From an uncultured Rhodospirillaceae bacterium (lineage in GTDB: Bacteria > Pseudomonadota > Alphaproteobacteria > UBA8366), in NCBI GenBank assembly GCA_913043025.1, contig CAJWLM010000003.1, positions 124,001 to 188,000 on the forward strand: a stretch of DNA of 64,000 nt. The letters run 5' to 3'. Below, in pieces: positions 39,552-41,997 of the stretch. Position 1 is the first letter of the stretch; every line of letters starts with the position of its first letter. The notes beneath the pieces were generated by a model, which worked only from the letters and a program-made list of their open reading frames with translations, was not told the origin of the DNA and searched no databases. Both the position numbers and the translations under genes were made by a program.

Positions 39552-40772
39552 TTAGTCATTAAGCCTGTGTTCTTGTGCCCTAGGTACAAGTTGTGTCTTA
39601 CCGACGTGCCTAATGCCTTCATCCTCGTGCTTAATGCATTTTGAATGCAGATCGAGAAACAGTTTACCTGCATTTGTTTCTCCCCAAAACCAATCGGCTG
39701 CTGAACGGCTGTTTTGCACATTGGACTTTGCCGTAGCAGCTTCAAGATACCACATCTTTACGTCCTCGCAAGTAAAGCGAAAAACCTCACCCAAAGTCAT
39801 ATCCTCCCGGGGATTATTTGGAGTTCCTTCAAGAAACCCAGCCAAAAACTCTGCCGCTTGTTTAATATCTAACCCTGCAAGCCCAAAGGTTGTCCTCCCC
39901 CGCTCATCGAGCGAGAGATTATACCAAGGTTTTAGCAAATCAATTTCAGTATAAACTTCTCTTAACACTTCGATATCAGTCTCGACTGCTGGCTTCGGGA
40001 AACCGACCGGACAAAAAACCCCCGATTGGTCGAAAGAATGGCCTCCTGGTGGTTCCTCGTCAAAATCTTCCAAGATTACCGGTCCGTCTGTACGTTCGAG
40101 AAGAGCCATGAGTGATGAGAGTACTTTTGTTTGAAATTCAGGCTCGTTCGGAGCTCCAAACGGCCGACCAAGCTCAAATGGCACCCAAAGTGCTCTTGGT
40201 GGTCGGATACGCTCTGTGTTTTCGCGTACTAGACTTATTCCGGCTGTCGCCAGTCCTTGTTCCTCAATATAATGACCCACCGCGCCGACCGCGCGAGTGC
40301 AGTTTGGTCAAACCGGCACTAACAGGACTGCATTAACATTGTCCTCACGAAGCAACCCTGCAAGCTCATGGCAAGTGGGCTTAATTTCGTGCGGAAGCCA
40401 CCCTGCCCCCATCAAAGAATAGTGAAACCTGGCAATTGAACCAATTTTTCCCCTATTCTCAAGTTCACGTAATCTATCAAGTGGGAAAACAACATTGGTA
40501 TCTTGCTGGAAACCGGTACGATCGTAATTGACGGAGGTGTGGGTCATTACGATATCATTTAAATCTATGTCTCCAGGAATCACCCTGTAACCTGTATCCT
40601 GTAGGAAAAAATTCTTGTCCTCCCGCCTGTGAAGCCCGGCCGTTGTGATAATCGCTACTCTTCGGTCCTCGAGTGCGGGGCCAAAGATAAATGGCTCATT
40701 ATCGAAAACAGGACACTCTTTTTCACGCAAATGCTTCGCATCAAGTGCCGGAATGTCTTTCAATCTAACCAT
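39552..40772 (-). CDS. GrdB/PrdB-like selenoprotein, copy A (in-frame TGA read as selenocysteine)
   Basis: Reading TGA at 40308-40310 as selenocysteine gives one 406-residue protein with Sec155 in VPV-U-PNCTRAVG, a U-x-x-C redox motif. Sequence on both sides belongs to the same family: before it IVMTHTSVNYDRTGF, FPLDRLRELENRGKIGSIA and HYSLMGAG; after it GISLVRENTERIRPPRALWVPF and LGRPFGAP. This is the glycine/sarcosine/betaine/D-proline reductase selenoprotein B superfamily. Start at ATG 40772 is chosen because copy B begins at the matching MVRL; a start 8 codons earlier overlaps copy B. A hairpin with loop GGUC(G) begins 8 bases after the TGA. No known substrate; other Grd/Prd subunits are not nearby. 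The gap after the copy B stop is 4 bases, so the two are surely coexpressed. Confidence 0.88.
40278..40299 (-). promoter_or_regulatory. SECIS-like hairpin after the copy A UGA
   Basis: Minus-strand RNA folds as CACU(C)GCGC-GGUCG-GCGCGGUG: eight pairs including one G-U, one bulged C. The apical GGUC starts 18 bases after the UGA, close to the spacing and the same loop bases as in the E. coli fdhF SECIS that binds SelB. Confidence 0.65.
40308..40310 (-). other. Predicted selenocysteine codon (TGA), copy A
   Basis: The triplet lies in the same motif position as the TGA of copy B, with family-conserved sequence continuing in the same frame on both sides. Confidence 0.88.
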
Positions 40773-40776
40773 GAAA

Positions 40777-41997
40777 TTAATCTTTAATCCGGGCAATTAG
40801 GTGTTGAAAATCTCTAGGAACAATTCCCTTGTTCCCTATTATTGTCAATTGCTTTTCATTCGATATCTTCATCAAAGATGCAAGTTGAAGCAAGGTTTCA
40901 CCGGCCGCTGTTTCACACCAAAACCACTCAGATATTTCTTCGCTAATCGTTCCCGGTTGCAGACTAGCAGCTTCATAGTACCAGACCTTCAAGTCGTCAG
41001 CCGCGAATTTCAGCTTTTGAGCCAATGACTCATCTTTTCCCGAAAAGGCAATACTCTGATCAGCAATAAAACTGTTTATGAAAGTAACGATCTCATGTAC
41101 GTCAAGGCCGCTAACCCCAAATACTGTTCGCCCTGTCTTTGCGTTATTAGAAACTCGGCATGGCGCAAGCAAAGATATTTCCCTAGCTAATGCCTCGCTA
41201 GGATATTTTATCCAACATGTGCGCGGCGGAAGGTTCACCGGACACGACCAGCAATCAGTTTTTTCATTTACGGTCCTATAATCCTGATCCGAAAAATTCT
41301 CTAAAACCGGCACATCCGAGCGCGCCAAAAGGCCTAGCCCGGCCTCAAGCACACGGCGTTGCAAGCCTGGTGAATCCGGTGCCCCCATTGGCCTTCCCAG
41401 TGGAAAGGGAACCCAAAGAGCACGAGGAGGATTTATTTTTTCTGAATGTTCACGCACAAGGCTAATTTGAACTGTTGAAATTCCTTTTTCTTCAATAAAC
41501 CTCGCTAACCCGCCAACGGCGCGCGTACAATTCGGTCATACTGGCGTTAGAAAAACAGCATTCACCTGATCTTCTTTTAGCATACCTATCATATTCTTAG
41601 CGCTCTTCTCGAGTGCTCCCGGCTCTGTTGCACCCATAAAAGAGTAATGTGATGAGGCAATTGATCCTATTGTTTTTGCCTCTTCTAATTCTCGGAGTCT
41701 ATCAATTGGAAAAACAGTATTTAGATCTTGGACAAAGCCGCTACGGTCGTAATTAACTGATGCATGGCTCATTACTATTTCACTGGCATCTGCAGTGTTC
41801 GGAATAACGCGATAATCACCAGACCCAGCTGAAAAAGTTTCATCATCTTTCATTGAGATGCCAGCCGAGGTGACAAGTGCAACTCGCGCAGCCCTTAAAT
41901 CTGGAGCAACAGAAAGTGGAGAATCATCGAACTGCGGACATGGAAGCCGCAGCAAATTCTCTGCTTCACCTTTCGATAGATCGCTCAACCGCACCAT
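40777..41997 (-). CDS. GrdB/PrdB-like selenoprotein, copy B (in-frame TGA read as selenocysteine)
   Basis: Also exactly 406 residues when TGA at 41536-41538 is read as selenocysteine: Sec154 in TPV-U-PNCTRAVG. N-terminal part has MVRLSDLSKGEAENLL, VMSHASVNYDRSGFVQDL, FPIDRLRELEEAKTIGSIA and HYSFMGA; C-terminal part has ISLVREHSEKINPPRALWVPF, LGRPMGAP, GRTVFGVSGLDVHEI and SEWFWCETAAGE. It aligns with copy A end to end, but has diverged, so the duplication is not recent. Start: ATG 41997 matches copy A; ATG 42012 is an alternative. An extra CWSC pair (about residues 220-225) is absent in copy A apart from a single Cys. Lies 54 bases after murJ on the same strand. Confidence 0.88.
41506..41527 (-). 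promoter_or_regulatory. SECIS-like hairpin after the copy B UGA
   Basis: Minus-strand RNA CGCC-GUU-GGCG forms the top of the hairpin (four pairs, three-base loop containing GU); weaker pairs with bulged G residues extend it down to UAC/GUUA. Position relative to UGA is the same as in copy A. Less regular than copy A. Confidence 0.5.
41536..41538 (-). other. Predicted selenocysteine codon (TGA), copy B
   Basis: Same codon of the same motif as in copy A; flanked by continuous family sequence in one frame. Confidence 0.88.

What the first reader, a model, noticed from the sequence alone, without database searches (positions are those of the whole stretch)
39552..41997. Tandem pair of GrdB/PrdB-like selenoproteins, each split by an in-frame TGA at the same codon
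Two adjacent 406-codon paralogues both carry TGA in the motif V-TGA-P-N-C-T-R-A-V-G. In each, family sequence continues in the same frame on both sides of the TGA, and the two genes are the same total length. Independent nonsense mutations at the same codon in two diverged copies are implausible; selenocysteine in a U-x-x-C redox motif explains it directly. Standard annotation would give four fragments.
Basis: partly seen in the sequence, partly recalled or inferred. Interest (0 to 1): 0.88.

Follow-up and report, generated by a model that had tools for sequence, protein, structure and literature searches.

The report
Tandem PrdB-like selenocysteine protein genes
Two side-by-side bacterial genes that look broken by a stop codon are almost certainly whole genes in which that codon inserts selenocysteine, making two related redox proteins of a widespread but uncharacterised family; the selenocysteine itself is a known trick, but what these proteins do in oxygen-respiring bacteria is not known.

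Summary
Confirmed. On the minus strand, 40777-41997 and 39552-40772 each encode a 406-aa protein interrupted once by TGA, in V-U-P-N-C-T-R-A-V-G. The genome has selA-selB-selC in one cluster and selD elsewhere. In homologues from Alphaproteobacteria, Desulfobacterota, Chloroflexota and other lineages, 136 of 137 strong hits carry TGA at that column. Three homologues have Cys exactly there, and their genomes show no full-length SelB. A short hairpin sits at +14 to +30 from the UGA, with compensatory changes beyond what the protein explains; it is decayed in the Cys homologues. Sequence after the TGA is under purifying selection. So these are selenoproteins (about 0.97). The pair are old paralogues kept in tandem within one bacterial family. 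Best guess: partner-free selenol/thiol oxidoreductases acting on an unknown substrate. 'PrdB' selenoproteins have been counted in ocean metagenomes since 2005, so novelty is moderate: a variant of a known kind.

The parts
40777..41997 (-). gene A: 406-aa PrdB-like selenoprotein (first gene of the pair)
   Evidence: TGA=Sec translation open throughout; PrdB model E 9e-32; orthologues in four other genomes of the bacterial family form their own supported clade
41536..41538 (-). TGA codon read as selenocysteine, residue 154, motif TPV-U-PNCTRAVG
   Evidence: TGA at this column in 136 of 137 strong homologues, Cys in three genomes without a SelB hit over cut-off
41508..41524 (-). core of the SECIS-like hairpin of gene A (+14 to +30 from the U of UGA)
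   Evidence: in gene A itself the outermost pair (G-U) is weak and its own folding z is only -1.2
41269..41910 (-). gene A PrdB/GrdB-like alpha/beta domain (about residues 30-243)
   Evidence: TIGR04483 match 35-229 on the 411-aa reading, that is 30-224 of the 406-aa protein; model of the paralogue, pLDDT 91
40780..41268 (-). gene A C-terminal region: conserved C-P then an all-helical domain
   Evidence: no Pfam family in the C-terminal alignment; predicted all-helical, pLDDT 89.6 (on the paralogue)
39552..40772 (-). gene B: 406-aa PrdB-like selenoprotein, ATG 4 bp after the stop of gene A
   Evidence: PrdB model E 2e-29; own orthologue clade
40308..40310 (-). TGA codon read as selenocysteine, residue 155, motif VPV-U-PNCTRAVG
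40280..40296 (-). core of the SECIS-like hairpin of gene B
   Evidence: (23-nt core, z -3.25)
40044..40685 (-). gene B PrdB/GrdB-like alpha/beta domain (about residues 30-243)
   Evidence: TIGR04483 match 41-234 on the 414-aa reading, that is 33-226 of the 406-aa protein; model: beta strand 148-152, then U155 at the N-terminus of helix 156-171
39555..40043 (-). gene B C-terminal region: conserved C-P then an all-helical domain

Best explanation
Both genes are translated through the UGA by the SelA/SelB/SelC/SelD system, directed by a hairpin just downstream, giving two 406-residue selenoproteins with a U-P-N-C active site (this step strongly supported by sequence; not shown experimentally; about 0.97). 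Each has a PrdB/GrdB-like alpha/beta domain with Sec at the start of a helix after a beta strand, plus a helical C-terminal domain (predicted). Inferred (about 0.5 as a specific mechanism): they work as selenol/thiol oxidoreductases like the Sec subunit of D-proline or glycine reductase. The selenolate would attack or reduce a small-molecule substrate, a selenenylsulfide would form with the C at +3, and cellular thiols would reset it. They would do so without the pyruvoyl subunit that PrdB and GrdB need. The pair may form a heteromer, or be two enzymes of different specificity.
For: Sec machinery complete: selC (ARAGORN tRNA-Sec), selB, selA adjacent to selB, selD. TGA at the exact column in 136 of 137 strong hits; the scan that found the named-genome loci used peptides that do not include the column. 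Cys at that column in three genomes with no full-length SelB, while this genome and its congener have SelB. Hairpin +14..+30: alifold -6.5 versus -3.2 +/- 0.03 kcal/mol for codon-permuted, protein-preserving controls; 98.6% of cells paired, 7 double-change cells versus 0.7 shuffled; decayed in the Cys homologues. Purifying selection downstream. Some homologues lie next to selD or selAB. Structure: U155 caps helix 156-171 after strand 148-152.
Against: No protein or selenium-labelling evidence. Substrate and redox partner unknown; gene neighbourhoods outside this family are mixed and give no pathway. The hairpin of gene A alone is not exceptional by shuffling (z -1.2). The Cys homologues also differ elsewhere (long branch), so they are not pure Sec-to-Cys swaps.
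Confidence: 0.96

Rival explanations
1. The TGA codons are nonsense mutations or sequencing errors and both genes are decaying.
For: One homologue (G035) has CGA at the column, showing that single-base differences occur. In G005 the upstream copy is in pieces next to an intact downstream copy.
Against: TGA at one column in over 130 hits from several phyla; purifying selection after the TGA; conserved hairpin; Cys counterpart in SelB-less genomes.
Confidence: 0.01
2. They are true D-proline reductase (PrdB) or glycine/betaine/sarcosine reductase (GrdB) subunits used for Stickland-type reduction.
For: Best family match is PrdB, E 2e-29 and 9e-32; ocean metagenome surveys call such proteins PrdB (PMC1088965, PMC2398784).
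Against: Scores 103 and 110 bits against a cut-off of 300. No PrdA, no GrdE/PrdA-type Gly_reductase domain and no GrdA in this genome, while the same searches find GrdE and GrdA in relative G028 (cluster). Two strong haem-copper oxidase hits suggest aerobic respiration. Extra C-terminal domain.
Confidence: 0.06
3. UGA is sense (for example Trp) throughout this genome.
For: A reassigned code would also leave both frames open.
Against: A genuine tRNA-Sec plus SelA/B/D exist; the column is Cys, not Trp, in the stop-free homologues; only two read-through sites of this kind appear in 64 kb.
Confidence: 0.005
4. The UGA works as a selenium-responsive switch: the short ~155-aa product has a function of its own when selenium is low.
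For: The N-terminal halves are well conserved and could fold.
Against: The truncated form ends just before the active-site U and C; no positive evidence.
Confidence: 0.03

Closest known systems
D-proline reductase subunit PrdB (TIGR04483)
   Same: Homologous over about 190 residues, with Sec in a UxxC motif at the matching place
   Different: Scores a third of the equivalog cut-off; the model is 238 positions against 406 aa here; no PrdA partner found; tandem paralogues; haem-copper oxidases in the genome
GrdB / GrdF / GrdH, selenoprotein B of glycine, sarcosine and betaine reductase (PF07355, TIGR01917/TIGR01918)
   Same: Homologous to the second half of GrdB, up to and past the Sec
   Different: Lacks the first ~200 residues of GrdB and adds a C-terminal helical domain; motif UPNC rather than the UGTC seen in the G028 GrdB; no GrdA or GrdE in the genome
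Ocean-metagenome 'Proline reductase PrdB' selenoproteins (Sargasso Sea 42 sequences, PMC1088965; GOS 235 Sec and 110 Cys, PMC2398784)
   Same: UxxC, assigned to PrdB and (in GOS) pfam07355, abundant in ocean surface water; probably includes this family
   Different: Those papers, as far as read here, do not separate the 400-aa form with the C-terminal domain or describe the tandem pair; identity with this family was not tested
UGSC-containing selenoproteins (NF041046)
   Same: Same genome carries four, each with one in-frame TGA; the model matches weakly to a true GrdB
   Different: 147-position model, motif UGSC; neither window gene was matched by it

Membership tests
Bacterial selenoproteins | In-frame UGA with family sequence on both sides under selection | tested here: met
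Bacterial selenoproteins | Sec machinery SelA, SelB, SelC, SelD in the genome | tested here: met
Bacterial selenoproteins | Stem-loop immediately 3' of the UGA (bacterial SECIS) | tested here: met
   decayed in Cys homologues
Bacterial selenoproteins | Cys homologues with Cys at the UGA column | tested here: met
Bacterial selenoproteins | Selenium in the protein | not testable with these tools
   needs 75Se labelling or mass spectrometry
D-proline reductase PrdB (TIGR04483) | Score above the curated cut-off (300 bits) | tested here: not met
   102.6 and 110.4 bits
D-proline reductase PrdB (TIGR04483) | PrdA/pyruvoyl partner encoded in the genome | tested here: not met
   TIGR04480 no match, without a positive control; PF09338 no match in G000 while it finds GrdE in G028; genome 97% complete
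D-proline reductase PrdB (TIGR04483) | D-proline reduction | not testable with these tools
   enzyme assay needed
Glycine reductase selenoprotein B (TIGR01917, PF07355) | Full-length GrdB architecture and score above the 602-bit TIGR01917 cut-off | tested here: not met
   49.7 and 62.7 bits, matching only the second half; the Pfam domain cut-off of 22 bits is passed by that half
Glycine reductase selenoprotein B (TIGR01917, PF07355) | GrdA and GrdE partners | tested here: not met
   none in G000, both found in G028
TIGR01918 various_sel_PB subfamily | Score above 65.45 bits | tested here: inconclusive
   gene A 66.8 (over), gene B 53.9 (under)

The most novel reading that the evidence does not exclude
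A distinct, widespread clade of partner-free PrdB-like selenoenzymes with a new C-terminal domain, in lineages that include aerobes, where tandem paralogues form a two-selenocysteine heteromeric reductase for an undescribed substrate.
Probability: 0.3. Interest if true: 0.65.

Novelty: new variant of a known kind. Interest (0 to 1): 0.42.

Why it matters
Ocean metagenome surveys list 'proline reductase PrdB' among the commonest selenoproteins of surface seawater, although D-proline reductase is known as an enzyme of anaerobic amino-acid fermentation. This family offers a possible resolution: at least part of that signal may not be proline reductase at all, but a separate branch without the pyruvoyl partner. 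Practically, standard annotation splits each gene into two fragments, so the family is easily missed, and tandem copies look like a run of four unrelated short genes.

Tried and rejected
Rfam at gathering cut-offs found nothing in the window; no SECIS family was matched, so the hairpin was tested by alignment instead. PDB sequence search with the family profile: no match up to E 1. Foldseek of the full model: nothing with E <= 0.001; VIA-align gives only generic alpha/beta matches such as LacI-type sensor domains, best Z 8.3, rmsd 3.4, 141 aligned, which I do not read as function. The C-terminal domain alone: no Pfam family, no Foldseek hit with E below 2.7, best VIA Z 3.9; this does not show a new fold. 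Gene neighbourhoods: in this bacterial family the flanks are housekeeping genes conserved by synteny; elsewhere they vary, with some adjacency to selD, selAB, HAD hydrolases and TauD dioxygenases, not enough for a pathway. Promoter and terminator scan uninformative.

Full report
What is there. On the minus strand, window 40777-41997 (gene A) and 39552-40772 (gene B) each read as 406 residues if one TGA is taken as selenocysteine, and each has no other internal stop. Standard ORF calling gives four fragments. Gene B's ATG lies 4 bp after gene A's stop. The proteins are 43% identical. A scan of all six frames of the 64-kb window for TGA in UxxC or CxxU context with at least 60 open codons on both sides finds only these two sites.

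Is the UGA decoded? The genome (65 contigs, 97% complete) has tRNA-Sec over the Rfam cut-off (ARAGORN agrees), SelB over its cut-off 0.2 kb upstream of selC, SelA immediately before selB (TIGR00474 E 6e-174), and SelD in a 766-aa frame. So the stated refutation, absence of sel genes, fails.

Homologues. A scan of one-per-species genomes, with peptide patterns that avoid the Sec column, found 195 relatives; the 80 kept come from Alphaproteobacteria, Desulfobacterota-type bacteria, Chloroflexota including SAR202, and some Beta- and Gammaproteobacteria, nearly all metagenome-assembled genomes. Across strong hits (E < 1e-60) the codon at the column is TGA 136 times and CGA once; some of these loci overlap or repeat one another, so this is a count of hits, not of independent genes. 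In an even sample of 385 genomes of the same class, 33 have the family. Three hits without a stop were read: all have Cys exactly at the column, V-C-P-N-C-T-R (ORFs), and their three genomes have no SelB over the cut-off, whereas this genome and its congener do. One of those three genomes is only 83% complete.

SECIS. The 45 nt from the UGA were compared in 83 dereplicated genes. A hairpin pairing +14/+30, +15/+29, +17/+27, +18/+26, +19/+25 (counting the U as 0), with GU in the loop, is predicted; its consensus energy is -6.5 kcal/mol against -3.2 +/- 0.03 when synonymous codons are permuted within columns, which keeps every protein and the column make-up. A count on 58 sequences gives 98.6% of cells paired, 7 cells with both sides changed (shuffled mean 0.7, 0 of 500 as high), and no slid version above 59%. 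The two outer pairs change on both sides in several sequences, including cases where the Arg after CT is replaced by Cys and the opposite base changes with it. In the Cys homologues 4, 1 and 3 of the five pairs remain and the GU loop is gone; the CGA outlier keeps all five, as expected for an error or a very recent loss. In the window, gene B's core hairpin is strong (z -3.25) and gene A's is ordinary (z -0.9). The position of the loop fits my recollection of the bacterial SECIS model; this was not looked up.

Selection. Between this genome and a congener, dN/dS (NG86) before and after the TGA is 0.13 and 0.24 for gene A and 0.05 and 0.06 for gene B. Both halves are constrained.

Family and fold. 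The best named match is PrdB (TIGR04483), E 2e-29 and 9e-32, at 103 and 110 bits against a cut-off of 300; GrdB models match only their second half. An AlphaFold model of gene B from 56 family sequences has pLDDT 91.4 and pTM 0.91: an alpha/beta domain (to about 243) with U155 at the start of helix 156-171 after strand 148-152, then a helical C-terminal part. Invariant or nearly invariant positions include S80, N82, D84, R85, H117, Y118, U155, C158, T159, R193 and C254. The C-terminal region alone folds as helices with pLDDT 89.6 and has no Pfam, PDB-sequence or convincing structural match. Absence of a match is not proof of a new fold.

Not proline or glycine reductase. PrdB and GrdB work with a pyruvoyl subunit (PrdA, GrdE), and glycine reductase with GrdA (general knowledge; GrdA and GrdB also described in PMC13188914). 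No PrdA (no positive control), no GrdE/PrdA-type domain and no GrdA were found here, while in relative G028 the same searches find a GrdE and a Sec-containing GrdA beside a GrdB with UGTC. This genome has two strong haem-copper oxidase hits, which suggests aerobic respiration, though nitric-oxide reductases belong to the same Pfam family and were not told apart. I therefore place these proteins in the PrdB/GrdB superfamily but not in either enzyme.

The pair. In a maximum-likelihood tree gene A and gene B fall in two separate supported clades, each with orthologues in the same other genomes of the bacterial family, and a third, more distant copy lies elsewhere in this genome. The pair is thus older than the genus and both copies kept Sec. 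Outside this family tandem copies are rare; one other case was seen (L059). In G005 the upstream copy is fragmented beside an intact downstream copy, so the two are not strictly inseparable.

What it does. Shown by sequence: Sec decoding. Predicted: position of U at a helix start. Inferred: a selenol/thiol oxidoreductase in which U and the C at +3 form the redox pair, acting on an unknown small molecule without a pyruvoyl partner. Some homologues sit near selD (12 loci in the cluster), selB (8 loci, including this genome's own sel region, which was fetched as such) or a HAD hydrolase (7 loci), but neighbourhoods are too mixed to name a pathway.

Known or new. 'Proline reductase PrdB' with UxxC was reported as abundant in Sargasso Sea (PMC1088965) and GOS data (PMC2398784; also 6.4% of GOS selenoprotein genes in PMC9402790). 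This family is probably part of that set; I could not test it. The selenoprotein claim is therefore not new in kind. The 400-aa architecture, the lack of partners and the conserved tandem pair were not found described in the passages read, so I rate it a new variant of a known kind.

Noticed in passing
G000:C4:34588-35016 (L153), C6:9804-10229 (L154), C1 (L155, L156): Four UGSC-family genes, each with one in-frame TGA; the first lies about 1.9 kb downstream of selC. The genome is selenoprotein-rich.
   Followed up: partly
L172 (G028:C421:20000-26500): A relative in the same order carries a GrdE + GrdB (UGTC) + Sec-GrdA cluster, unusual for an alphaproteobacterium by my recollection; used here as a positive control.
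   Followed up: partly
L017 (G000:C2:48263-49180): SelD lies in a 766-aa frame, so it is probably fused to another domain; the GOS paper mentions SelD fusions.
   Followed up: no
L171 (G035:C158): A homologue with CGA instead of TGA at the Sec column but an intact SECIS hairpin: sequencing error or very recent loss.
   Followed up: partly
G005:C7:142010-142728: The upstream copy of the tandem pair is in two overlapping fragments next to an intact downstream copy, as if decaying in that genome or misassembled.
   Followed up: no
genomes G007, G019, G028 and others: A second group of ~300-aa PrdB-like genes with motif U/C-P-x-C-H-Q-T, mostly with one TGA and sometimes Cys; some genomes hold up to ten members of the two groups together.
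   Followed up: partly
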